48,119 nucleotides of DNA from Collinsella tanakaei (lineage in GTDB: Bacteria; Actinomycetota; Coriobacteriia; Coriobacteriales; Coriobacteriaceae). Positions within the stretch are counted from its first letter, which is position 1. The number at the start of each line of letters is the position of its first letter. Under the pieces are notes generated by a model. It made no database searches. It had not been told where the DNA came from and worked only from the letters and a program-made list of their open reading frames with translations. Position numbers and translations under genes: made by a program. The stretch lies in assembly GCF_030373545.1 (NCBI RefSeq), contig NZ_JAUDCO010000011.1, forward strand, positions 1 through 48,119, in the 5' to 3' direction. Shown one piece after another: positions 37,395 through 48,110 of this stretch.

Positions 37395-38432
37395 ATGGGA
37401 ACTTACATCGCGAAGCGCGTGCTTCAGTTCATCCCGGTCTTCCTCGGTGTCACGATCATCCTCTTTGTGCTGCAAAACGTCGTGCCCGGCGACCCCATCA
37501 GGTTGATCACCGGCGGCCGCGCCGTTCCGGAGCAGACCGAGGAGATCATGCGCATCAACAACCACCTCATTCAGGTGGATGAGAACGGCAAGGCCCTGCG
37601 CGACGAGAACGGGGAGTACATCCCGACCTCGCTCGTCGATCGCTACTTCAACTACATGAACAAGCTGTTCCACGGCGACCTCGGCACGTCGTATCAGAAG
37701 AAGGTCTCCGTCACGAGCATCTTCGCGCAGAAGTATCCCTATACGGTCCGTCTTGCCGCATGCGCCATCGCGCTCGAGGCGATCATGGGTATCGGCGCGG
37801 GCGTGCTATCGGCGATCAAGCGCTATTCGTTCTGGGACATCCTCGTCACGCTGTTCACCTCCATCATGGTGGCGATCCCGGCGTTCTGGCTCGGCATGCT
37901 CCTGCAATGGTTCTTCGGCATCCTCATGAAGCAGTGGACGGGCGGCGCCTTCTCCATGCCCATCTCGGGCGCGGGCGGACCGAGCTCGCCGTACTACGAC
38001 TGGATGCACTACATCCTGCCCGCCTTCACGCTGGCGGCGGTCTCGACGGCCTACACGGCGCGCATCATGCGCTCGCAGCTGCTGGACGTCATGAACCAGG
38101 ACTACATCCGCACGGCTAAGGCCAAGGGTCTGTCCAAGCGCGACATCATCGTGCACCACGCGCTCAAAAACGCGCTGATTCCGGTCGTCACCTACATCGG
38201 CATCGACTTCGGCGGCATGCTCGCCGGCGCGATCCTGACCGAGACGGTCTTCAACTGGCCGGGTGTCGGCTACGAGATCTACCGCGCCATCACGGCGCGC
38301 GACTGGCCCATCGTCATGGGCGGCGTGACCATCATCGTCGTGGTGGTTATGGTCATCAACCTGATCGTCGACGTGAGCTACGCCTTCCTGGATCCGCGCA
38401 TCCGCCTGGGCAGCTCCAAGAACGAGGGATAG
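37395..38432 (+). CDS. oppB: Oligopeptide ABC transporter permease, DppB/OppB type
   Basis: A 345-residue inner-membrane permease. The N terminus (YIAKRVLQFIPVFLGVTIILF) is the first helix of DppB-type proteins, followed by a large loop and five more helices. The coupling loop with the EAA motif, YIRTAKAKGLSKRDIIVHHALKNALIPV, sits around residues 236-263 and docks on the ATPases. A loop of about 35 residues after the first helix (polar, with NGKALRDENGEY) is longer than in classic OppB. AGAGGGG ribosome site. Followed 10 bases later by oppC. Confidence 0.94.
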   Translation: MGTYIAKRVLQFIPVFLGVTIILFVLQNVVPGDPIRLITGGRAVPEQTEEIMRINNHLIQVDENGKALRDENGEYIPTSLVDRYFNYMNKLFHGDLGTSYQKKVSVTSIFAQKYPYTVRLAACAIALEAIMGIGAGVLSAIKRYSFWDILVTLFTSIMVAIPAFWLGMLLQWFFGILMKQWTGGAFSMPISGAGGPSSPYYDWMHYILPAFTLAAVSTAYTARIMRSQLLDVMNQDYIRTAKAKGLSKRDIIVHHALKNALIPVVTYIGIDFGGMLAGAILTETVFNWPGVGYEIYRAITARDWPIVMGGVTIIVVVVMVINLIVDVSYAFLDPRIRLGSSKNEG

Positions 38433-38442
38433 GAGGCAAACC

Positions 38443-39390
38443 ATGAAGTACCCGAAGCCTATCCCCGAGGCGGGGACGGTGACCATGCATACGGTCTCGA
38501 AGGCGACGACGGGCGACGGCGCGAGCCGCACCCTGTGGGGCGACGCCTGGAAGCGCCTGCGCCGCAACAAGCTCGCCGTCATCGCGGTCATCTGGATCGT
38601 GTTAGTGGCCATCATCGCGCTCACCTGCGATCTGTGGGCCCAGCAGCTGCTCGGTGACCCGCTGTACGCAAGCACCGCGGAGATGTCCAAGAACACACTG
38701 CTCGCGCCCTCGCTCGAGCATCCCTTCGGCACCGACGTCACCGGCCGTGACATCCTGTGCCGCGTCATCTACGGCTCGCGCATCTCGCTGTCCGTCGGCA
38801 TCATCGCCACGGCGATCTCGACGGCCATCGGTCTGGTGATGGGTGCGCTCGCGGCCTACTACGGCGGCATCTTCGACACCATCATCATGCGTCTGGCCGA
38901 CATCTTCCTGGCGTTCCCGTACACGCTGTTCGTCATCGCGATGATCGCGGTCATCGGCAACGGCATCCAAAACGTGTTCATCGCCATCGGTATCCTCGGT
39001 TGGCCGAGTATCGCCCGCGTGTTCCGCTCCGCGATCCTGTCGGTCAAGGAGAACGACTACGTCGACGCCGCGCGCGCCATGGGCGCCTCTGACGTCCGCA
39101 TCGTCGCGCGTCACATCTTCCCGAACTCCGTAGCCTCGATCGTCGTGTACGCCACGATGAACATCGGCTCCGCCATCCTCACCGAGGCCGCCCTTTCGTA
39201 CCTCGGCATGGGCGTGACGCCGCCGCAGCCTTCGTGGGGCGCCATGATCCAGGAGGGCCAGACCTTCCTGACGACGGCTCCGTGGATGATGATCATGCCC
39301 GGTCTCGCCATCCTCACCACCGTGCTCGCCTTCACCCTGCTGGGCGACGGCCTGCGCGATGCCCTCGATGTCAAGATGAAGGACGCGTAA
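38443..39390 (+). CDS. oppC: Oligopeptide ABC transporter permease, DppC/OppC type
   Basis: A 315-residue second permease. About 35 cytoplasmic residues lead into LWGDAWKRLRRNKLAVIAVI, the typical OppC_N region and first helix. After a periplasmic loop (HPFGTDVTGRDILCRVIYGSR) come five helices. The EAA loop YVDAARAMGASDVRIVARHIFPN is near residues 206-228. It ends 4 bases before oppD. OppB and OppC should form the heterodimeric channel. Confidence 0.95.
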   Translation: MKYPKPIPEAGTVTMHTVSKATTGDGASRTLWGDAWKRLRRNKLAVIAVIWIVLVAIIALTCDLWAQQLLGDPLYASTAEMSKNTLLAPSLEHPFGTDVTGRDILCRVIYGSRISLSVGIIATAISTAIGLVMGALAAYYGGIFDTIIMRLADIFLAFPYTLFVIAMIAVIGNGIQNVFIAIGILGWPSIARVFRSAILSVKENDYVDAARAMGASDVRIVARHIFPNSVASIVVYATMNIGSAILTEAALSYLGMGVTPPQPSWGAMIQEGQTFLTTAPWMMIMPGLAILTTVLAFTLLGDGLRDALDVKMKDA

Positions 39391-39394
39391 CGCC

Positions 39395-40525
39395 ATGGCC
39401 AAGAAGAAGAATACGAACTACGTCGACCTCAAGACGAAGCCCATTCCCGAGGGCAAGCACCTGCTCGAGGTCGACAACCTCAAGATGTACTTCCACACCG
39501 AGGACGGCATCGTCCATGCGGTCGACGGCGTGTCCTACACGCTCGATCGCGGCGAGACCCTCGGCGTGGTGGGCGAGTCCGGTTCCGGCAAGTCCGTGAC
39601 CGCCATGACGCTCATGGGCCTCATCGATATGCCTCCGGGCAAGATCGAGGGCGGCCACGTCTACTATCGTGGCGAGTCCCTGCTCGACATGACCGAAGAG
39701 CAGATGCAGCACGTGCGCGGCAACGACATCGCCATGATCTTCCAGGACCCCATGACCTCCCTGAACCCGGTCTACAAGATCGGCCGTCAGGTGGGCGAGG
39801 GACTGCGCCTACATCGCGGCTACACCAAGGAGCAGGCGCTCGAGCGCGCCACCGAGCTTTTGCGCCTCGTGGGCATCCCGAACCCCGAGAAGCGCGTCAA
39901 CGAGTACCCGCATCAGTTCTCGGGCGGTATGCGCCAGCGCGTCATGATCGCCATGGCGCTCGCCTGCGACCCGGACATCCTCATCGCCGACGAGCCCACG
40001 ACGGCCCTCGATGTGACCATCCAGGCGCAGATCATCGAACTCATGCAGGAGATGCAGGCCAAGAACGGCAACGCGATCATCATGATCACGCACGACCTGG
40101 GCGTCGTGGCCGACATGGCCGACAAGATCATGGTCATGTACGCCGGTCGCCCCGTGGAGTTCGGCACGGCAGACGAGATCTTCTACGACAGCCGCCACCC
40201 CTACACGTGGGGTCTCATCCGCTCCATTCCCGAGCAGGCGACCGACGAGAAGAAGCCGCTCACGCCGATCAACGGCAATCCGCCGTCGCTCGTGAACCTG
40301 CCTTCCGGCTGCCCGTTCGCCCCGCGCTGCCCATATGCCGTGGACATCTGCCATGAGAAGCTGCCCGAGCACGTCGTGACCGAGACCGGCCACTACTCCG
40401 CGTGCCACTTCGCCGACGATCCGGACTTCCTGAAGCTTGCGCCGGACACCTCGCGTTCGCGTGGCAAGATCGCCACGGGTACGCCCGACACGCTCGATGA
40501 GAGCCAGATGGGAGGTGAGGCATAA
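39395..40525 (+). CDS. oppD: Oligopeptide ABC transporter ATPase OppD
   Basis: A 376-residue ABC ATPase. Walker A GESGSGKS (60-67), Q-loop [10 protein letters not shown], signature FSGGMRQRV (about 175), Walker [13 protein letters not shown] and the switch histidine in MITHDLG are all present. The C-terminal oligopeptide extension carries the cysteines [15 protein letters not shown] plus CHF, which in related transporters bind a 4Fe-4S cluster. It drives peptide uptake together with OppF. The tail beyond is about 30 residues, polar. oppF starts 2 bases after its stop. Confidence 0.96.
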
Positions 40526-40526
40526 G

Positions 40527-41555
40527 ATGGCCTCGAACACCGATAACATGCCTCTGCTCAAGGTCGAGCACCTCACCAAGGAGTTTCCCGCCGAGGCCGG
40601 CATGCTCGCCAGCCGCTTCTCCAAGCGCGTCGTCTCCGCGGTAAACGATGTCTCGTTCGAGATCCACGCCGGCGAGACCTTCGGTCTGGTCGGTGAGTCC
40701 GGCTGCGGCAAGTCCACGACCGGCCGCTGCATCATGCGCCTGACCAAGCCCACGGCGGGCAAGGTGTACTTCCAGGGCCAGGATATCGCCGCCATGAGCC
40801 ACAAGGAGCTCAAGGCGATGCGCCGCGAGATGCAGTTCATCTTCCAGGATCCCTACGCGTCGCTCAACCCGCGCATGACGATCGGCGAGATCGTCTCCGA
40901 GCCCATGACCATCCACAACGTGGGCACCAAGGAGGAGCGCATGCGCACGGTGCGCGAGCTCCTCGACGTCGTCGGTCTGAACCCCGAGCACATCAACCGC
41001 TACCCGCACGAGTTCTCCGGCGGTCAGCGCCAGCGTATCGGCATCGCCCGCGCCTTCGCGCTCAAGCCGAAGCTGATCATCTGCGACGAGCCGGTCTCGG
41101 CGCTCGACGTATCCATCCAGGCGCAGGTCCTGAACCTGCTCAAGGAGCTGCAGAACAAGTACGGCACCGCTTACCTGTTCATTGCGCACGACCTGTCCGT
41201 CGTCCAGCACATCTCCGACCGCGTGGCCGTCATGTACCTGGGCAAGATGGTCGAGCTCTCCGACTGGAAGACGCTCTACACCGAGCCCCACCATCCGTAC
41301 ACGCAGTCTCTGCTCTCGGCGGTCCCGGTGCCCGATCCGGACGTGCAGAAGACCCGCGAGCGCATCATCCTGGCCGGCGACCCGCCGTCGCCGATCGATC
41401 CTCCGACCGGCTGCCGTTTCCATACGCGCTGCCCGATCGCCCAGCCGGCGTGCTCCAGCGAGCAGCCCGAGCTCAAGGAGGTCGCACCCGGACACTTCTG
41501 CGCATGCCATTGCGCCCGTCCGTTCCCCATCAGGGAGACCCATATCGACCTGTAG
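40527..41555 (+). CDS. oppF: Oligopeptide ABC transporter ATPase OppF
   Basis: The partner ATPase, 342 residues. Walker [10 protein letters not shown] (56-64), Q-loop [13 protein letters not shown], signature [17 protein letters not shown], Walker [13 protein letters not shown], switch histidine in FIAHDLS. The C-terminal extension also has the cysteine pattern ([17 protein letters not shown]...CACHC). The ATG at 40527 has GGGAGGTGAGG 5-15 bases upstream, within the oppD end. A terminator follows at 41584. The set oppABCDF is complete. Confidence 0.96.
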
Positions 41556-41583
41556 CGCTCGCCGCGCCCAGGAGCTTTTATGT

Positions 41584-41619
41584 GACCCGGATTCGCCGCG
41601 TGCGAATTCGGGTCATTTT
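41584..41619 (+). terminator. Terminator of the opp operon
   Basis: A 12-bp stem with one G-T pair (41584-41595 with 41603-41614) followed by ATTTTG. Confidence 0.8.
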
Positions 41620-41650
41620 GCATGCTTGGGGCGCGGTCGCGCCGTCGCGC

Positions 41651-41680
41651 TTGAAACGATGCGGTGCCGTGCGGGACAAT
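41651..41680 (+). promoter_or_regulatory. Promoter of the second binding-protein gene
   Basis: TTGAAA (41651-41656), 18 bases, GACAAT (41675-41680). Together with the terminator just upstream it makes the following gene a separate transcription unit. Confidence 0.5.
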
Positions 41681-41736
41681 ACCTGAAAAACCGTGGCCCC
41701 GTCCGCGTCAGGCCTATTCGTTAGGAGCAATCCGCC

Positions 41737-43443
41737 ATGTCCGATCCCGCTACCCACCCCATCAGCCGCAGGGACGCCCTTGTCCGCATGCTTGCGCTGT
41801 CGGCGCTCGTTCCGCTTGCGGGCTGTACGGGCACTGAGGCGGGGGAGGGGCAGGCGAGCGAGGGCAGCGACGCCCTCGCCGCGCAGAAGGCCGCATCGCT
41901 TGCGTTCGGTCTTGTGGCGCCGGCGGCAATCGATCCCTATCGCGTGGTCGACGCGTCGGGCGAGCAGGTTGCCCACCAGCTGTTCGACCCGCTGACGCGC
42001 TTCGACTGCGAGACGGGGACCCTGACGTGCCTGGCTGCCGAGCGCTACGAGGCGTCCGAGGACCAAATGACGTTCACGTTCGCGCTCAGGGACGCGACGT
42101 TCCACGACGGCACCCCGGTGCGCGCGTCCGATTTCAAGCGGGCGTGGGAGCGCTTGGCGTCCCCGGGCGCCGCGGTTTCGGATGCCGCGGCCCCTGTTGC
42201 GGACCGTTCCTACCTGCTCTCCCTTGTCGAGGGCTATGAGGCGTTTCGCGCCGGTGACGCATGGGGGCTGTCCGGCGTCACCTGTCCCGACGACCGGACG
42301 CTCATCGTGAAGCTCGCCGAGCCCTATGCCGATTTCCCCTTCGTCGCGGCAGCGTTGTGCCTGGCCCCGGTGCCTGCGGCTGCCGACGACGACCCGGAAG
42401 GGTTCGCCCGTCTTCCGATCGGTAACGGTCCCTTCATGCTCGAGTCGCCGTACGAGCAGGGCGATGAGGAGATATCGCTCGTGCGCTACGACGGGTACGC
42501 GCTCGCCGCGCCCTCGCTCGAGCGCGTGACGTTTCTTGTCTTCGATCGCTTCTCCGAGGTGTACCGCGCGTTTGAGGCGGGCGATGTCGCCGTCTCAGGC
42601 TGCCCGATAGAAAACGTGGACGCCAACGCCGCAGACTGGAAGTCTTCGGACGACGAGCGCCTGGAGCTCAACCGGGGTCGCCATACCGTCTTGGCCGCGA
42701 GTCCCGTCGTCTCGTATCTGGTATGCAACACCGCTACCGAACCGTTTGACAGTCCCGCCTTCCGCCGCGCGCTATCGATGGCGATCGACCGTGACGGGCT
42801 CGTCAAGAGCGTGTTTCGCGACGCGCGGATGCCCGCCGACGGTATCGTCGCGCCCATGGTTCCCGGCTATCGCCCTGAGGCGTGGCCCTATGCCGTCTAC
42901 GATGCCCAAGCGGCATCCGATCTGCTCGACGCCACCTGCCCGCGCGGTGCCGACGGCGAGCGCGGCGTCGAGATCTCGTTGGTCTTCGGCTCGGGCGGGG
43001 GACACGAGAACGCCATGGAGGCGATCGCCCGCGACCTCGAGGCCGTCGGCGTCACCTGCGCCCTCGAGCCGGTCGAGTTCGAAGACCTGCATGCCCGCCT
43101 TGCCGACGGCAACTTCCAGCTCGCCCGCGTCGACTGGACGATGGATGCCATGAGCATGGATAACGTTTTATTCCCGCTGTTCCACTCGTCGTGCATCGGG
43201 GGTTCCAACTACTCCCGCTTCGCCGACGAGCAGGTCGACGAGCTCATTGACGAGGCCCGTTCTGAGCGGCGCGCTGCCGAGCGCACGTCGTTGCTCCAGC
43301 AGGCGGAGGATATCGTGGCGCGCGACTGCCCGGTGATCCCCTATCTCTTCGGTGCGCGGGCGCATGTGGGCACGCGGGCCATCGAGCGCCTTCCCTTTGA
43401 CTCCTTTGGCTATGCACATCTGGATGAAGCCGAGCTTGTATAG
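41737..43443 (+). CDS. Second oligopeptide-binding lipoprotein, paralogue of OppA
   Basis: A 568-residue SBP family 5 protein. SRRDALVRMLALSALVPLAGC (from residue 10) combines twin arginines with a lipobox ending at C30. It is clearly related to the OppA at 35637: both have QLFD.LT..D, GVTCPDD.TL.VKLA..YADFP, and the .P.DGIVAP/.PADNIVPP element. Similarity is moderate, and its codon use is less biased, so it is an older paralogue at lower expression. It has its own promoter and no permease or ATPase genes. It probably serves the adjacent OppBCDF with another peptide specificity, or acts as a sensor. Ribosome site TTAGGAG. Confidence 0.9.
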   Translation: MSDPATHPISRRDALVRMLALSALVPLAGCTGTEAGEGQASEGSDALAAQKAASLAFGLVAPAAIDPYRVVDASGEQVAHQLFDPLTRFDCETGTLTCLAAERYEASEDQMTFTFALRDATFHDGTPVRASDFKRAWERLASPGAAVSDAAAPVADRSYLLSLVEGYEAFRAGDAWGLSGVTCPDDRTLIVKLAEPYADFPFVAAALCLAPVPAAADDDPEGFARLPIGNGPFMLESPYEQGDEEISLVRYDGYALAAPSLERVTFLVFDRFSEVYRAFEAGDVAVSGCPIENVDANAADWKSSDDERLELNRGRHTVLAASPVVSYLVCNTATEPFDSPAFRRALSMAIDRDGLVKSVFRDARMPADGIVAPMVPGYRPEAWPYAVYDAQAASDLLDATCPRGADGERGVEISLVFGSGGGHENAMEAIARDLEAVGVTCALEPVEFEDLHARLADGNFQLARVDWTMDAMSMDNVLFPLFHSSCIGGSNYSRFADEQVDELIDEARSERRAAERTSLLQQAEDIVARDCPVIPYLFGARAHVGTRAIERLPFDSFGYAHLDEAELV

Positions 43444-43563: not shown

Positions 43564-43653
43564 GTCGGAGTGGCGGAATTGGCAGACGCGCTAGCTTGAG
43601 GTGCTAGTGACCACTTTTCGGTCATGCGGGTTCAAGTCCCGCCTCCGACACCA
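43564..43653 (+). tRNA. tRNA-Leu (anticodon GAG)
   Basis: Acceptor GTCGGAG (43564-43570) pairs with CTCCGAC (43643-43649), followed by A and an encoded CCA. D-loop GGAATTGGCAGACGCG, anticodon loop TTGAGGT with GAG at 43598-43600, a class II long variable arm, and T-arm GCGGGTTCAAGTCCCGC. All pair. It reads CUC/CUU leucine codons. Confidence 0.97.
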
Positions 43654-43665
43654 TCGAATTCTTCG

Positions 43666-43693
43666 AGCCTCCGTTCGGGAGGCTTTCTTTTTA
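43666..43693 (+). terminator. Terminator after tRNA-Leu
   Basis: AGCCTCC (43666-43672) pairs with GGAGGCT (43678-43684), followed by TTCTTTTT. Confidence 0.85.
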
Positions 43694-43779
43694 CCCATCG
43701 GACATGTCATGATATACGGCACGAGGATTCTCGGCCCGAGCGCCACGGCGCCTGTGGGCCGTGCGATGGGGGTGCTCAA

Positions 43780-46110
43780 GTGGAGTCCAAGGACAAAAGC
43801 GCATTCGGCGAGGTTGCGAACCTGGTCGAGCTGACAAGCGATGCCGTCGCGCTCTGCGAGCGTGACGGCACGGTGCTCCATGTGAACCAGCAGATGCTTT
43901 CGCTTGTCGAGCAGGCGCGGCAGCGCATCGTCGGGCAGGACATCAAGGACTATCTGTACAGCGAGGCTTTCGAGCGTGCCCCCGGCGGGTCGTTTCCCTT
44001 CTCGCTGGACGGTCGGGCGTCCACCTGTCGTCTCAAGCTGCCCGAAGGTTCGTTCATACCCGTCTCGGTGCGTGCGTCCGAGGTCTCGGCGCGCACGTTC
44101 GGACCGTTTTCCCATGGGGGCAAGCGCGTTCTCATGGTCGTGCGGAGCCTCGAGGAGCAGTACGCGCACGATCGGCAGACGCAGCGCCTCCTCAAAGAGC
44201 TTCAGGCCGTCAACAGAAGGCTTTCGGGCACGCTCTCGGTCATCATGACCGCTGCGGGCTCCAAGGACCTTCCGTCGCTTCTGGACGCCGTTCTCAACAA
44301 GCTCGTCGAGACCCTCGATGCCGATGGCTCCTCGATCTACTTCTCCGAGAGCGGAGGATTCAAGCTGCGCGGCATCAGCTACGGCCTGACGCGCGACTAC
44401 GTTCCCGAGTTCATTCCCTTCGGCGCCGGCGTTCCCACCTATGTGCTGCGCGAGCAGCGCACGTGCAACCTGGCGATCGTTCCCTCGTCGTATGGGAGGG
44501 GCGCCGATTCGAATGTCTTTTATGACATCGATACCCGTGAGAGCACGCGCCTTCGTGTCGAGAACATGCCACCTTACCGTACGCTTATCGCGGTTCCCGT
44601 GTTTTTCGGTACCCAGGTGCTCGGCATCCTCGAGCTCGGGTGGAAGCGGCCGCGCCTGCCGCGCGCCCTCGATGCTCGCGTGCTCGAGGTCATCTGCGAC
44701 TATCTTTCGATCGAGCTCGTCGGCCTGGTGAGCAGTCTGCGCTCGCAGCGCACCGAGGAGCTCACGCGTTCGCTCAACCGCACGAGGGAGTTCATGTTCT
44801 CCCAGAACATGAGCCGTCGTGCCGTGTGGGACGGGATGACCGATGAGGTCCATCGGGTTCTGCAGTGCCGTGTGTGCGCCATCCTGCCCGATACCCAGCA
44901 CCATTGCTACGTCCTCGACTTTGAGGGCGGCAGTCGCGTGTGCCTTCCGGGGACCATCGAGGAGATGTTCTTCTCGACCACGGCCCCTGCAGCGCGCGTG
45001 GACCCCTTGGACCGCATACCGCTCGTCCACGACCAGAGCGCCTGGTCCTGCGCTCCCGAGGACCTGCGGACCGTGCGCCTGGTGCGCGTCGATACGACCA
45101 CCTGGGCGGGCGAGTGGCTCGCCTCGCGCGGGCTGCCGAGCCAAGGCGTGTTCTTTGACCTCCGTGAGACGTTTGCCGACGCGGGCGCAGACGACGAGGG
45201 CGAGGCGGGGGAGGATGCCGCCGAGGGCGGCGTGCCCCGCATGGTGCTCCTTCTGCGCGACAGCACGCAGGAGCCCATCGACAATCTTGAGTACGACTAC
45301 CTCGTCCGCTTGGCGCACGATTTCGAGATCATGTGCCAGGGCATGCAGAAGGCGAACTCGGAGCGGCGTATCGCCCAGACGCTGCAGGTGGGGATGAGAA
45401 ACAGCCTGGGGAGCGTTCCGGGTATCACCACCGACTCCCTCTACTCGTCCGCCACGCAGCAGGCCATGGTCGGCGGCGACTTCTACACGCTCATCCGTCT
45501 GCCCGACGACCGCGCGGTCATGGTGCTCGGCGATGTGTCGGGCAAGGGCGTTGAGGCCGCCTCCATGTCCGCCTTGGTCAAGACCGCACTCACCGCGTAC
45601 GCGTGGGAGGGCGCGAGCCCGCAGCACATGGTGCGCTCGCTCAACAACATGCTCATGAGCTTCTCGCGGGTCGAGACGTTCGCCACCATGTTCGTGGCAA
45701 AGATCGATTTGCGCTCGCACGTGGCGACCTACTGTTCCGCCGGGCACCCGCCGACGGTGCTCATCCACCCCGCCGTACCCGGCTCTTCCGATGCCGATGC
45801 AGTGGGCGAAATGGAGCTTCTCAGCGTCCAGTCGGGTGTGGTGGGCGCGTTTGAGTCCATGGCGTACGAGAGCGGCGTGTTCTCGTTTTCCGCCGGGGAC
45901 ATCCTGTTCATGTACACAGACGGGGCGATCGAGGCCAGGGACGCATCGGGCGAGTTCTTCGGCGAGCGGCGCCTGTTCGACTTGGTGCTTCACGAGTCCG
46001 CATCCGGTGTGCACGGCCTGTGCGCGAGCGTGCTCGATCAGCTGGACGAGTTCACCTCCTCGACGCTGGATGACGACATCGCGCTCGTGGCGTTGCGGTT
46101 CGATGCATGA
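43780..46110 (+). CDS. PAS-GAF-SpoIIE/RsbU-type PP2C serine phosphatase
   Basis: A 776-residue soluble sensor phosphatase. Order: PAS-like domain (about 10-120, LVELTSDAVALCERDGTVLHVN), short coiled linker, GAF domain (about 160-315), a second less clear sensory region (about 340-500, with an acidic loop near 470-482), then a SpoIIE/PP2C catalytic domain (about 525-776). Metal-binding aspartates are visible: D567 in VGGDFYT, D585 in GDVSGKG, D714 in YTDGAIEA and D765 in LDDDIAL. It should dephosphorylate a STAS antagonist, most likely the next gene's product. The GTG at 43780 is preceded by TGGGGGTG; the frame is open further back, into the tRNA, so an earlier start cannot be used. No transmembrane helix seen, so the signal is cytoplasmic. 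Confidence 0.9.
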   Translation: MESKDKSAFGEVANLVELTSDAVALCERDGTVLHVNQQMLSLVEQARQRIVGQDIKDYLYSEAFERAPGGSFPFSLDGRASTCRLKLPEGSFIPVSVRASEVSARTFGPFSHGGKRVLMVVRSLEEQYAHDRQTQRLLKELQAVNRRLSGTLSVIMTAAGSKDLPSLLDAVLNKLVETLDADGSSIYFSESGGFKLRGISYGLTRDYVPEFIPFGAGVPTYVLREQRTCNLAIVPSSYGRGADSNVFYDIDTRESTRLRVENMPPYRTLIAVPVFFGTQVLGILELGWKRPRLPRALDARVLEVICDYLSIELVGLVSSLRSQRTEELTRSLNRTREFMFSQNMSRRAVWDGMTDEVHRVLQCRVCAILPDTQHHCYVLDFEGGSRVCLPGTIEEMFFSTTAPAARVDPLDRIPLVHDQSAWSCAPEDLRTVRLVRVDTTTWAGEWLASRGLPSQGVFFDLRETFADAGADDEGEAGEDAAEGGVPRMVLLLRDSTQEPIDNLEYDYLVRLAHDFEIMCQGMQKANSERRIAQTLQVGMRNSLGSVPGITTDSLYSSATQQAMVGGDFYTLIRLPDDRAVMVLGDVSGKGVEAASMSALVKTALTAYAWEGASPQHMVRSLNNMLMSFSRVETFATMFVAKIDLRSHVATYCSAGHPPTVLIHPAVPGSSDADAVGEMELLSVQSGVVGAFESMAYESGVFSFSAGDILFMYTDGAIEARDASGEFFGERRLFDLVLHESASGVHGLCASVLDQLDEFTSSTLDDDIALVALRFDA

Positions 46111-46200
46111 TGGCGGCCGCGATGCGCCATTGGGCGCCTTTGGGTTGCGCAACAGGGCTCCTGCATGAATAGGTGCGCATGAACGGGGAACCATGAGCGT

Positions 46201-46956
46201 ATGAACGAATGGAATGACATAGCGGTCATCTCGCCGGTGAGGGATATCGATATCTCGACCGTTGCGTCCCTGCGCAGCCAGATCGACGCACTCGTCGAGT
46301 CGGGCGTTCGCCGTATCTTGGTGAACTGCCAGGATGTCACCTATATCGATTCCTCGGGGATCGCCTGCTTGCTTTCGCGCTCCCGCGAACTCGCTCGGCT
46401 GGGGGGCATGCTGTCCCTTGTCAACACATCGCCGGGCGTGACGCGTTCCATTCAGATCGCACGTCTGTTGGATGCCCTGCATGTGACCGCCGCCGTGCGT
46501 CCGCCGGTGCCCGTGCTCAAGCCGGGCGAGCTGCCGCTCTGGAGCAAGAGCGTGTCCGTCCGCGAGGGCGTGGAAAATCTCGGGTACTATCGGCACCGCA
46601 TAGCCGACATGATCTCCGCGCTGCCCATGAGCCAAAACGACCGGTTCGATACGGCGCTTGCCGTGGGCGAGGCGCTCTCGAACGCCTACGACCATGGTGG
46701 AAACGGCGCCGGCTGCACGATGATGGTGATGGCCTATCCCGATCGCGTTGTGATCGAGGTGCGTGACTGCGGCTGCGGCTACGAGATCGCTCCGGACGAG
46801 GAGCCGCGCGAAAGCGTCGAGCGCGGTCGCGGTATCAGGCTTATGCGCATGCTGGTGGATAGCGTCGAGGTGCGCCGTCGACGGGACACGACGGGTACCC
46901 TGGTGCGCCTCATCAAGCTGCTGAACGAGACGGGGGCTCCGGACAGGGCGGCATAG
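46201..46956 (+). CDS. Fused STAS antagonist and HATPase anti-sigma kinase (RsbV-RsbW in one chain)
   Basis: A 251-residue protein with two parts normally on separate chains. Residues 1-100 are a STAS domain with the phosphorylation motif D50-S-S-G53. Residues about 115-245 are a GHKL/Bergerat ATPase of the RsbW/SpoIIAB type: N box E157-ALSN161-AYDH165, G1 box D189-CGCG193, G2 box G209-RG-IRLM. All kinase residues are present, including the catalytic base E157. It lies 90 bases after the phosphatase gene and probably forms one operon with it. In classic partner switching the kinase phosphorylates the antagonist, and the antagonist binds the kinase to release sigma. Here that switch could be internal. 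No sigma gene is next to it. Confidence 0.9.
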   Translation: MNEWNDIAVISPVRDIDISTVASLRSQIDALVESGVRRILVNCQDVTYIDSSGIACLLSRSRELARLGGMLSLVNTSPGVTRSIQIARLLDALHVTAAVRPPVPVLKPGELPLWSKSVSVREGVENLGYYRHRIADMISALPMSQNDRFDTALAVGEALSNAYDHGGNGAGCTMMVMAYPDRVVIEVRDCGCGYEIAPDEEPRESVERGRGIRLMRMLVDSVEVRRRRDTTGTLVRLIKLLNETGAPDRAA

Positions 46957-46961
46957 ATGCG

Positions 46962-46998
46962 AACGCATCAGGGGGTCCTTCCGGACCCCTGATGCGTT
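46962..46998. terminator. Hairpin after the STAS-kinase gene
   Basis: The stem 46962-46978 pairs with 46983-46998, about 16 bp with one bulged G. There is no clear T tract. It stands between the plus-strand regulatory operon and the minus-strand tRNA region and can slow transcription from either side. Confidence 0.65.
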
Positions 46999-46999
46999 C

Positions 47000-47163
47000 T
47001 GGAGGCGACGCCCGGATTCCGCGTGCGCCTCGCGGCGCCCGTGCCGGCTGCGGGCGCTGGCCGCGCCCGCTTCACGCTCGCGCCGCCAGCGCGGTTCGAA
47101 CCCGGTTTCTCAAGGTTCGAACCCGGTTTCTCAAAAAACGAAAGGGCCCCGTCATCGGAGCCC
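47000..47163 (-). repeat. Decayed tRNA-Cys 3' end and trailer, copy A
   Basis: 47000-47019 equals the last 20 bases of tRNA-Cys including CCA (plus strand TGGAGGCGACGCCCGGATTC). After it the tRNA sequence breaks off into GC-rich bases. Then come two GGTTCGAACCC words like tRNA T arms (47092-47102, 47115-47125) and a terminator-like hairpin (47144-47163) with its T tract on the minus strand. The rest of the tRNA is missing, so this is not a functional gene. Confidence 0.8.
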
Positions 47164-47175
47164 TGTCAGTTTCTC

Positions 47176-47348
47176 TGGAGGCGACGCCCGGATTCCGCGT
47201 GCGCCTCGCGGCGCCCGCACCGGCTTCGGGCGCTGACCGCGCCCTCGCCCGCTCGCTACGGGCGCTCGCGCGCCCGCTTCACGCTCGCGCCGCCAGCGCG
47301 GTTCGAATCCGGTTTTCCAAAAACGAAAGGGCCCCGTCACCGGAGCCC
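47176..47348 (-). repeat. Decayed tRNA-Cys 3' end and trailer, copy B
   Basis: The same 20-base tRNA-Cys 3' fragment at 47176-47195, the same GC-rich continuation (about 30 bases longer, with GCTCGCTACGGGCGCTCGCG), the CGCCGCCAGCGCGGTTCGAA segment and a hairpin at 47329-47348. Copy A and copy B are a tandem duplication of the trailer next to the intact tRNA-Cys at 47361. Confidence 0.85.
47318..47348 (-). terminator. Terminator of tRNA-Cys, first copy
   Basis: On the minus strand GGGCTCC pairs with GGGGCCC (one wobble), then TTTCGTTTTT. It lies 12 bases after the CCA end. Confidence 0.8.
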
Positions 47349-47360
47349 AGTCAGTTTCTC

Positions 47361-47434
47361 TGGAGGCGACGCCCGGATTCGAACCGGGGGTAAAGGCTTT
47401 GCAGGCCTCTGCCTTACCACTTGGCCACGTCGCC
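47361..47434 (-). tRNA. tRNA-Cys (anticodon GCA), first copy
   Basis: Acceptor GGCGACG pairs with CGTCGCC, discriminator T, encoded CCA at the 3' end (47361-47363 on the plus strand as TGG). Anticodon loop CTGCAAA with GCA at 47402-47400; T arm CCCGGTTCGAATCCGGG. The only acceptor difference to the copy at 47917 is one compensated pair. Confidence 0.97.
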
Positions 47435-47441
47435 GAATATG

Positions 47442-47469
47442 AAAAGAGCCGATTGTAGAAAACCGGCTC
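47442..47469 (-). terminator. Hairpin between tRNA-Gly and tRNA-Cys, first copy
   Basis: On the minus strand GAGCCG and CGGCTC pair (47469-47464 with 47451-47446), followed by TTTT. It may be a processing site or attenuator between the two tRNAs. Confidence 0.55.
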
Positions 47470-47480
47470 CTTGCATGCGA

Positions 47481-47556
47481 TGGAGCGGACAACGGGGCTC
47501 GAACCCGCGACCCCAACCTTGGCAAGGTTGTGCTCTACCAACTGAGCCATGTCCGC
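47481..47556 (-). tRNA. tRNA-Gly (anticodon GCC), first copy
   Basis: Acceptor GCGGACA pairs with TGTCCGC, then T and CCA. D arm GGCTCAGTTGGTAGAGC, anticodon loop TTGCCAA (GCC), T arm GCGGGTTCGAGCCCCG. Identical over its length to the copy at 48035. Confidence 0.97.
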
Positions 47557-47568
47557 TTGCGAGGATGT

Positions 47569-47597
47569 ACTATACGCGATTTCGGGGGGCGGCGCAA
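47569..47597 (-). promoter_or_regulatory. Promoter of the first tRNA-Gly/tRNA-Cys pair
   Basis: On the minus strand TTGCGC (47597-47592), 17 bases, TATAGT (47574-47569), 12 bases before tRNA-Gly. Strong. The remaining bases to 47688 show nothing else. Confidence 0.7.
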
Positions 47598-47688
47598 GAA
47601 GCATTTTGCTCTGCACACGTTGTTCAAAGTATCCGATCGTGCGGAGAAGCGCCAAAGGCGTATTGCGACACCTCGGGTTAAACCGTAA

Positions 47689-47821
47689 CCCCGTTTAGGG
47701 GACGGTTTTTGAAGCGAGTGCCGAGTACACCCGAACTGGGCAATGCCTTGACCAGCGAGTCTAGTACTTATATCAACCCGTCTACTTGAAGGATGCTATG
47801 AAAACCGTCCCCTAAACGGGG
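47689..47821. mobile_element. Inverted-repeat element with 21-bp perfect arms
   Basis: Perfect 21-bp inverted arms (47689-47709 and 47801-47821), outer end CCCCGTTTAGGGGACGG, enclose 91 bases without an open frame of note. Size and structure suggest a miniature non-autonomous element or a third REP-like pair. It lies between the two tRNA pairs. No transposase recognising these ends is in the window. Confidence 0.75.
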
Positions 47822-47875
47822 GTAGGGGTTTCGGGGGCTGCTCCGCGCCGCCAGCGCGGTTCGAATCCGGTTTCC

Positions 47876-47904
47876 AAAAAAGAAGGGCCCCGCTGCCGGA
47901 GCCC
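47876..47904 (-). terminator. Terminator of tRNA-Cys, second copy
   Basis: GGGCTCC/GGGGCCC hairpin on the minus strand (47904-47885) followed by TTCTTTTTT. The adjacent CGCCGCCAGCGCGGTTCGAA trailer (47848-47867) recurs after the first copy. Confidence 0.8.
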
Positions 47905-47916
47905 TATCAGTATCCC

Positions 47917-47990
47917 TGGAGGCGAAGCCCGGATTCGAACCGGGGGTAAAGGCTTTGCAGGCCTCTGCCTTACCACTTGGCCACTTCGCC
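47917..47990 (-). tRNA. tRNA-Cys (anticodon GCA), second copy
   Basis: As the first copy, but with acceptor GGCGAAG/CTTCGCC. Position 6 and its partner both changed (C-G to A-U), keeping the pair. The encoded CCA, the anticodon and the other arms are intact. Confidence 0.97.
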
Positions 47991-47997
47991 TGATATG

Positions 47998-48023
47998 AAA
48001 AGAGCCGATTTGAAAACCGGCTC
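47998..48023 (-). terminator. Hairpin between tRNA-Gly and tRNA-Cys, second copy
   Basis: GAGCCG/CGGCTC stem extended by further pairs, then TTTT on the minus strand. Counterpart of 47442-47469 with a shorter loop. Confidence 0.55.
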
Positions 48024-48034
48024 GAATCATGCGA

Positions 48035-48110
48035 TGGAGCGGACAACGGGGCTCGAACCCGCGACCCCAACCTTGGCAAGGTTGTGCTCTACCAACTGAG
48101 CCATGTCCGC
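48035..48110 (-). tRNA. tRNA-Gly (anticodon GCC), second copy
   Basis: Same sequence as 47481-47556. The next nine bases (TTGCGAGGA) also match the first copy, so the duplication and its promoter probably continue past the window end. Confidence 0.97.

What the first reader, a model, noticed from the sequence alone, without database searches (positions are those of the whole stretch)
43780..46956. Condensed partner-switching module: STAS antagonist and anti-sigma kinase fused in one protein, beside a PAS-GAF phosphatase
Seen: one 251-residue chain has an intact STAS phosphosite motif (DSSG, 50-53) and an intact RsbW-type ATPase (E157, N161, H165, D189-x-G-x-G, GRG). Known: in RsbV/RsbW and SpoIIAA/SpoIIAB switches these are separate, because binding between them competes with sigma. 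Fusion forces a 1:1 ratio and allows self-phosphorylation within the chain, so the switch logic must differ. The PP2C phosphatase upstream would reset it. No sigma gene is adjacent, so the output is unknown: a distant sigma factor, another STAS protein, or a non-sigma target.
Basis: partly seen in the sequence, partly recalled or inferred. Interest (0 to 1): 0.85.

Follow-up and report, generated by a model that had tools for sequence, protein, structure and literature searches.

The report
STAS–kinase fusion controlling sigma factor
A gut bacterium makes one small protein that joins a stress-switch kinase to a switch target usually made separately; many relatives keep it, and it probably controls a stress-type sigma factor encoded elsewhere, although the same two-part design was already described once in another actinobacterium.

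Summary
Window 46201-46956 encodes one 251-aa chain with a STAS domain (phosphosite D50-S51) and an RsbW/SpoIIAB-type ATPase, 90 nt downstream of a PAS-GAF-PP2C gene. It is not a frameshift: S51 and the catalytic residues are invariant in 69 distinct sequences, except one change at G193, and a PP2C gene lies just upstream in 89 of 92 loci.

The 'unknown output' has a strong candidate. A SigB/F/G-type sigma factor (195 of 296 class genomes) occurs only in genomes with a fusion match (201 of 296). It sits behind an RsbW homologue without the ATP-site Asn (46 of 47 loci). A free STAS protein keeps its phosphosite (30 of 30). The fusion is the only kinase-competent RsbW-type protein found in this genome, so it is probably the kinase of the free STAS protein, as RsbW2 is in Mycobacterium smegmatis. 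No binding or phosphorylation was tested.

The architecture has precedents: Actinoplanes SipA has the same domain order and similar size, and Rv1364c carries both domains. New variant of a known kind.

The parts
43780..46110 (+). PAS-GAF-PP2C phosphatase gene (RsbU/RsbP-like), GTG start, 776 aa
   Evidence: Pfam SpoIIE 1.1e-44, GAF 1.2e-10, PAS 0.0017 (below cut-off); a PP2C match just upstream of the fusion in 89 of 92 loci
43813..44079 (+). PAS-like region (residues about 12-100)
   Evidence: weak Pfam PAS hits, below gathering scores
44263..44718 (+). GAF domain (residues 162-313)
   Evidence: PF13185 2.1e-11, PF01590 1.2e-10
45472..46101 (+). SpoIIE-type PP2C catalytic domain with GGDF (565), GDVSGKG (584), YTDG (712), LDDDIAL (763)
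46201..46956 (+). STAS-HATPase fusion, 251 aa
46213..46491 (+). N-terminal STAS domain (residues 5-97)
   Evidence: PF01740 5e-16, TIGR00377 1.1e-18
46351..46353 (+). S51, predicted phospho-acceptor serine
   Evidence: invariant in 93 of 93 rows, 69 distinct; aligned with SpoIIAA of 1th8
46576..46917 (+). C-terminal RsbW/SpoIIAB-type ATPase (residues 126-239)
   Evidence: PF13581 4e-17; fold matches SpoIIAB, RsbW and UsfX chains
46669..46695 (+). N box E157-x3-N161-x3-H165
   Evidence: 93 of 93 rows at each of the three residues
46765..46779 (+). G1 box D189-x-G191-x-G193
   Evidence: 93, 93 and 92 of 93 rows
46825..46833 (+). G2 / lid motif G209-R210-G211
   Evidence: 93 of 93 rows
46962..46998 (.). 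inverted repeat directly after the fusion gene (arms of 16-17 nt with one bulged base), likely end of the operon
   Evidence: seen in the sequence; not tested further

Best explanation
The two genes are the input half of a split partner switch. The fusion is a dedicated STAS kinase that carries its own STAS domain; the output is a SigB/F/G-type sigma factor encoded elsewhere (G000:C22). Proposed cycle: (1) the sigma is held by its neighbour gene's product, an RsbW homologue that has lost the kinase motifs; (2) a free RsbV-type STAS protein (G000:C23) frees the sigma by binding that anti-sigma, but only when its DSTG serine is unphosphorylated; (3) the ATPase domain of the fusion phosphorylates the free STAS protein, keeping the sigma off, and also phosphorylates S51 of its own STAS domain; (4) on a signal read by PAS-GAF, the PP2C removes phosphate from S51 and probably from the free STAS protein. 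The unphosphorylated fused STAS domain then docks on the attached ATPase and blocks it, so phosphatase action and kinase shut-down reinforce each other and the sigma is released. Shown here: domains, intact motifs, conservation, gene order, loss of the kinase motifs in the RsbW homologue, co-occurrence. Inferred: every phosphotransfer, every binding step, the signal, and the functional link between the loci.
For: Both active sites are kept in 93 of 93 rows (69 distinct), apart from G193 in 92. A PP2C match ends 14-457 nt upstream on the same strand in 89 of 92 loci. The sigma is SigBFG subfamily, 288 bits against a cut-off of 234. Of 296 class genomes, 195 have the sigma at E<=1e-60 and all 195 are among the 201 with a fusion match; no genome of family f3 is in either list (lists compared). 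In an 80-genome set the free STAS is found at E<=2.1e-18 in 49 of 49 genomes of f1, f2 and f5 and in 0 of 15 of f3. The RsbW homologue upstream of the sigma has Y, F or L where RsbW has the N-box Asn in 45 of 45 aligned, and a 46th reads the same by eye; its best solved relative is B. subtilis RsbW, 2.9e-14. Free STAS phosphosite YIDSTG in 30 of 30. In G000 the other four HATPase_c_2 matches at E<=0.001 are sensor histidine kinases by eye, so the fusion is the only kinase-competent RsbW-type protein found. G087 has a free STAS gene, the RsbW homologue and the sigma in a row. Precedents: RsbW1 (no kinase activity on RsfB), RsbW2 (kinase) and RsfB in M. smegmatis (PMC7693655); the SipA ATPase domain binds its own STAS and a second STAS (PMC10733313).
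Against: No binding or phosphorylation was tested. The co-occurrence rests mainly on one clade (f3) lacking both parts, so it is few independent events. Six genomes have a fusion match but no sigma at E<=1e-60; one of them, G128, is 98% complete, has the fusion beside its PP2C gene and four further strong HATPase_c_2 matches, so there the module must have another output or the sigma is missing from the assembly. None of the 21 fusion regions compared carries the sigma or the RsbW homologue. No SigB/F-like promoter was found upstream of the free STAS, PP2C or rsbW-sigma genes: 0 of 30, 0 of 41 and 0 of 46. In the other families of the class the free-STAS matches are weak (E 4e-13 to 3e-8), and in G129 the only match is the fusion itself. 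In the SipA paper the authors' structural model has the two STAS domains on opposite faces, which speaks against simple competition.
Confidence: 0.55

Rival explanations
1. Self-contained antagonist: the fused STAS domain itself, when unphosphorylated, binds the kinase-dead anti-sigma and frees the sigma; the attached kinase phosphorylates it in the same chain or dimer, and PP2C resets it. The free STAS protein serves something else.
For: S51 is invariant while S52 is not; Rv1364c is reported to phosphorylate and dephosphorylate its own STAS serine (PMC7693655 passage); the PP2C is next to the fusion.
Against: The free STAS protein would be left without a known kinase although its phosphosite is kept in 30 of 30. 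In G087 it is a free-standing STAS gene, not the fusion, that precedes the rsbW-sigma pair. A STAS domain tethered to its own ATPase domain would tend to be occupied by it, as in SipA.
Confidence: 0.2
2. Direct anti-sigma: the ATPase domain of the fusion binds a sigma factor itself, like SpoIIAB or RsbW, and the fused STAS domain competes with the sigma on the same chain.
For: The ATPase domain matches RsbW/SpoIIAB models and folds, including anti-sigma chains of the UsfX-RsfB and SigF complexes; five sigma-70-type genes are in the genome.
Against: The SigB/F/G-type sigma already has its own adjacent RsbW homologue; M. smegmatis RsbW2 did not bind SigF, and Actinoplanes SipA did not bind the sigma domain of its partner (PMC7693655, PMC10733313).
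Confidence: 0.1
3. Non-sigma output: the module controls a different STAS-bearing or unknown target, as SypE-SypA or SiaABC do in proteobacteria (recalled; titles seen).
For: No sigma gene beside the module; G128 keeps the module without the sigma; no shared promoter signal.
Against: Only two STAS domains were found in the genome, the fusion and the free one; near-perfect co-occurrence with the sigma.
Confidence: 0.13
4. Artefact: a frameshift or assembly error joins two genes.
For: None found for this locus. Outside the class, seven matches spanning both domains are two separate genes with a stop between them, so the two-gene form does exist.
Against: Frames of 229-276 aa holding both domains in 92 loci.
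Confidence: 0.01

Closest known systems
SipA (AMIS_54230) of Actinoplanes missouriensis, Nat Commun 2023, PMC10733313
   Same: 243 aa, N-terminal STAS and C-terminal RsbW-like ATPase on one chain; its ATPase domain binds its own STAS domain and a second STAS domain by two-hybrid
   Different: The second STAS is the C-terminus of the sigma factor SsdA; a term search of the main text for SpoIIE and PP2C found neither, and no phosphorylation of SipA is reported in the passages seen; here the second STAS is a free protein, and neither STAS in the genome lies on a sigma factor
Rv1364c of M. tuberculosis (PMC7693655, PMC10950880, PMC12143880 passages; original papers not read)
   Same: RsbW-type kinase and STAS on one chain with PAS and PP2C; STAS serine reported to be phosphorylated and dephosphorylated by the same protein
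   Different: All in one chain, in the order PAS-PP2C-kinase-STAS; here PP2C is a separate gene and STAS is N-terminal to the kinase
M. smegmatis SigF partner switch (RsbW1, RsbW2, RsfB; PMC7693655)
   Same: Sigma-binding RsbW without kinase activity on the antagonist, a second RsbW as its kinase, a free STAS antagonist
   Different: RsbW2 is not described as a STAS fusion in the passages seen; here the kinase carries a STAS domain
B. subtilis RsbV/RsbW/RsbU and SpoIIAA/SpoIIAB/SpoIIE (established knowledge)
   Same: Same domain folds and motifs, PP2C reset
   Different: One RsbW does both sigma binding and phosphorylation; antagonist and kinase are separate chains

Membership tests
RsbW/SpoIIAB anti-sigma kinases | GHKL ATPase with N, G1 and G2 boxes | tested here: met
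RsbW/SpoIIAB anti-sigma kinases | binds a sigma factor | not testable with these tools
   no binding data; the sigma has its own RsbW homologue
RsbW/SpoIIAB anti-sigma kinases | scores above an RsbW or SpoIIAB equivalog cut-off | tested here: not met
   spIIAB 36.5 bits against 135; RsbW 26.8 against 145
RsbV/SpoIIAA antagonists | STAS domain with phosphorylatable Ser after Asp | tested here: met
RsbV/SpoIIAA antagonists | single-domain protein | tested here: not met
   251-aa two-domain chain
SipA-type STAS-RsbW proteins | N-terminal STAS plus C-terminal RsbW-like ATPase, about 240-250 aa | tested here: met
   PMC10733313 passages
SipA-type STAS-RsbW proteins | partner sigma factor with its own STAS domain | tested here: not met
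   two STAS domains found in the genome, neither on a sigma factor
SipA-type STAS-RsbW proteins | orthology by sequence to SipA | not tested
   SipA sequence was not fetched
M. smegmatis-type split SigF switch | sigma-linked RsbW without kinase motifs | tested here: met
   N-box Asn lost in 46 of 47 loci, one locus unresolved; activity itself not measured
M. smegmatis-type split SigF switch | separate kinase acting on the free STAS | not testable with these tools
   argued by elimination only
RsbU/SpoIIE PP2C phosphatases (upstream gene) | SpoIIE-type catalytic domain with metal-binding Asp motifs | tested here: met

The most novel reading that the evidence does not exclude
Across most of the Coriobacteriia, the two jobs of RsbW have been divided: the sigma-holding copy lost its kinase site, and the kinase copy was fused to a second antagonist domain that acts as its built-in, phosphatase-controlled off-switch. 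One phosphatase would then both rescue the free antagonist and shut down its kinase: a double-acting, possibly ultrasensitive partner switch that I have not seen described.
Probability: 0.35. Interest if true: 0.65.

Novelty: new variant of a known kind. Interest (0 to 1): 0.48.

Why it matters
It gives a testable wiring for a stress-type sigma factor in Coriobacteriia (Collinsella, Atopobium and relatives); my two searches on that group, 'Collinsella' with 'anti-sigma' and 'Coriobacteri' with 'RsbW', found no paper on it. It also places SipA, whose authors in 2023 knew of no protein of similar domain structure, beside a design conserved in another actinobacterial class, and offers a natural system for asking what a tethered antagonist does to a partner switch.

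Tried and rejected
Frameshift or artefact: rejected. Fusion shared with other actinobacterial lineages: my notebook entry lists seven such genomes; this was wrong. On reading, all seven are adjacent separate rsbV and rsbW genes with a stop between them. Of the further rows printed, those outside the class that span both domains also show stops inside, except G540, which is a true single chain of a different kind. Rows beyond the printed part were not seen. SigB/F-like promoters upstream of the module genes: none; only three loose patterns were tried, against mononucleotide shuffles. Paper searches for the architecture by domain words gave nothing to the point; the SipA paper was listed and recognised only on reading. 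One-chain structure: mean pLDDT 81.6 and pTM 0.74; the arrangement of the two domains was not analysed, since no complex could be run and no error matrix was returned.
Full report
Check of the observation. The frame 46201-46956 (+) gives 251 residues. It holds a STAS domain (PF01740, 5e-16, residues 5-97) and an RsbW-type ATPase (PF13581, 4e-17, residues 126-239). NCBIfam gives anti-sigma factor antagonist (TIGR00377, above cut-off) for the first part and only sub-cut-off RsbA, SpoIIAB and RsbW matches for the second. The gene 90 nt upstream encodes a GAF-SpoIIE/PP2C protein with a PAS-like N-terminus, start GTG at 43780; its frame is open back into the tRNA-Leu gene at 43564-43653. An inverted repeat with one bulged base follows the fusion.

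Conservation. A scan of named bacterial genomes gave 42 loci: by title 37 Collinsella, three other Coriobacteriaceae-like genomes and two Atopobium/Atopobiaceae. Lengths are 229-276 aa; the 93 rows with the window hold 69 distinct sequences. D50, S51, E157, N161, H165, D189, G191 and G209-R210-G211 are identical in 93 of 93 rows and 69 of 69 distinct sequences; G193 in 92 and 68; S52 is T in 53, S in 35 and A in 5 rows. S51 is aligned with the first Ser after Asp of SpoIIAA. A PP2C match ends 14-457 nt upstream on the same strand in 89 of 92 loci; in L091 it ends about 1 kb upstream, and L078 (1.5 kb held) and L175 (3.0 kb held) have none. In the 88 of 92 loci where a script could assign the PP2C frame, GGD and DD-x-A/T/S motifs are in 88 of 88; TDG too, but it was part of how the frame was picked; GDVSG-like in 73, the other 15 reading DVCGKG or similar.

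Rest of the genome. The genome of the window (2.2 Mb, 25 contigs) has two STAS matches, the fusion and a 104-aa free STAS protein; three SpoIIE-profile matches, of which one is this PP2C, one a PP2C of another type and one below cut-off; five sigma-70 region 2 matches; and six HATPase_c_2 matches at E<=0.001. Of the six, four are sensor histidine kinases by their His-box sequence read by eye, one is the fusion, and one is a 126-aa RsbW homologue whose frame overlaps the start of a SigB/F/G-type sigma gene. Weaker homologues below that threshold would not have been seen.

The anti-sigma without kinase motifs. Of 47 sigma loci from the class, 45 upstream proteins aligned by script have Tyr (38), Phe (6) or Leu (1) at the N-box Asn position and no GxG lid. 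The script's picking pattern fixed the residues just before that position, not the position itself. Two of the 45 (L099, L111) contain a D-x-G-x-G string. A 46th (L157) reads Tyr by eye, and in L120 no upstream frame was found. The best solved relative of this family is B. subtilis RsbW, 2.9e-14, where the aligned residue is Asn. Loss of kinase activity is inferred, not measured.

Co-occurrence. In one draw of 296 class genomes the fusion query matched 201 at E<=0.001 and the sigma query 195 at E<=1e-60. All 195 are within the 201 (lists transcribed and compared). The six with a fusion match but no sigma are G128 (98% complete), G061, G097, G121, G125 and G149. Seven of the 201 fusion matches are weak (E from 8.5e-15 to 1.8e-6: G017, G085, G107, G133, G149, G151, G291) and may be STAS only or partial. 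No f3 genome is in either list; the 20 no-match genomes printed are all f3 and 75 were not printed. In a chosen set of 80 genomes the sigma (E<=1e-60) is in 18 of 18 f1, 29 of 30 f2, 1 of 1 f5, 0 of 15 f3 and 16 of 16 of the other families of the class. The free STAS query gives E<=2.1e-18 in 49 of 49 of f1, f2 and f5; in f3, 11 of 15 have no match and four a very weak one; in the other 16 the matches are weak, and in G129 the only match is the fusion. The free STAS reads YIDSTG in 30 of 30 loci examined (the picking pattern required a DS motif, and no locus failed it). Since the main absence is one family, this counts as few independent events.

Other kinases in relatives. In 11 genomes searched with PF13581, 17 loci other than the fusions were read: ten carry a histidine-kinase His box, three (L204, L210, L211) look like histidine-kinase or LytS-type ATPases by eye, and four look RsbW-type, three of them in G128 and one a short fragment in G078. 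Rows without loci were not examined, nor were loci L213 and L219 of G003.

Link between loci. In the 17 sigma loci from f5 and the other families, the RsbW homologue precedes the sigma in 17 of 17; in G087 a free STAS gene precedes both, which gives the classical rsbV-rsbW-sigma order. None of the 21 fusion regions compared (L171-L191) has a match to the sigma or the RsbW homologue; the Collinsella fusion loci were not put to this test. A search for SigB/F-like promoters upstream of the free STAS, PP2C and rsbW-sigma genes found 0 of 30, 0 of 41 and 0 of 46.

Structure. AlphaFold2 on the window protein with 23 relatives: mean pLDDT 81.6, pTM 0.74. Foldseek matches in the PDB are SpoIIAB (1th8, 1tid, 1l0o), RsbW (6m36, 6m37) and mycobacterial anti-SigF chains (8ih8, 8jzt) for one half, and SpoIIAA and relatives for the other. 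The top two rows are a Leptospira response regulator aligned over both halves at rmsd 19, which is not a real superposition.

Origin. Outside the class, the seven strongest matches that span both domains are pairs of neighbouring genes, rsbV then rsbW, with a stop codon between them. The fusion may thus have arisen by joining such a pair early in the class (inference). One weaker match (G540) is a single chain, so other fusions exist.

Literature. Read in part: PMC7693655 (abstract and passages), PMC10950880 (passages), PMC10733313 (passages, sections 9 and 14), PMC8256260 and PMC12143880 (passages). In M. smegmatis, RsbW1 is the anti-sigma and did not phosphorylate RsfB, RsbW2 is the kinase of RsfB. 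Rv1364c is reported there to phosphorylate and dephosphorylate its own STAS serine; the original papers were not read, and one title among them speaks of loss of kinase activity. SipA of A. missouriensis has the same two domains in the same order; its ATPase domain binds its own STAS and the STAS of the sigma SsdA, and not the sigma domain. 'Coriobacteri' with 'RsbW' gave no paper and 'Collinsella' with 'anti-sigma' one unrelated paper; only open-licence papers are held.

Verdict. The thing is real, conserved across most of its class and sensible. The wiring around it, a STAS-bearing kinase, an anti-sigma without kinase motifs and a free antagonist at three separate loci, is a new variant of the actinobacterial partner switch. 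The best-supported role is kinase of the free STAS protein with a built-in, phosphatase-controlled STAS regulator, at about 0.55.

Noticed in passing
window 47361-48110: Two tRNA-Cys/tRNA-Gly pairs on the minus strand form a direct repeat of about 555 nt spacing (89-96% identical), at the end of the contig; further repeats at 46998-47320.
   Followed up: partly
window 37395-43443: Looks like a peptide-transport cluster: two permease-size frames, two ABC ATPase frames with oligopeptide-type C-termini, and a substrate-binding-protein-like frame just upstream of the module (reading by eye, no family search).
   Followed up: no
L171, L193, L212, L218, L229, L230 (genome G128): A genome of family f2 that keeps the PP2C-fusion pair but lacks the SigB/F/G-type sigma, and has four further strong HATPase_c_2 matches on long frames; the two regions fetched show a PP2C match next to the ATPase.
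   Followed up: partly
L157 (genome G087): Free STAS, RsbW homologue without kinase motifs and sigma in a row; this genome has a second sigma copy on another contig.
   Followed up: partly
window 43591-46968, minus strand: A 1125-aa open frame antisense to the whole module; probably a by-product of high G+C codon usage.
   Followed up: no
L231 (genome G540): A single-chain STAS-ATPase protein outside the class, with DSSG and an N-box Asn but a different G1 region.
   Followed up: partly
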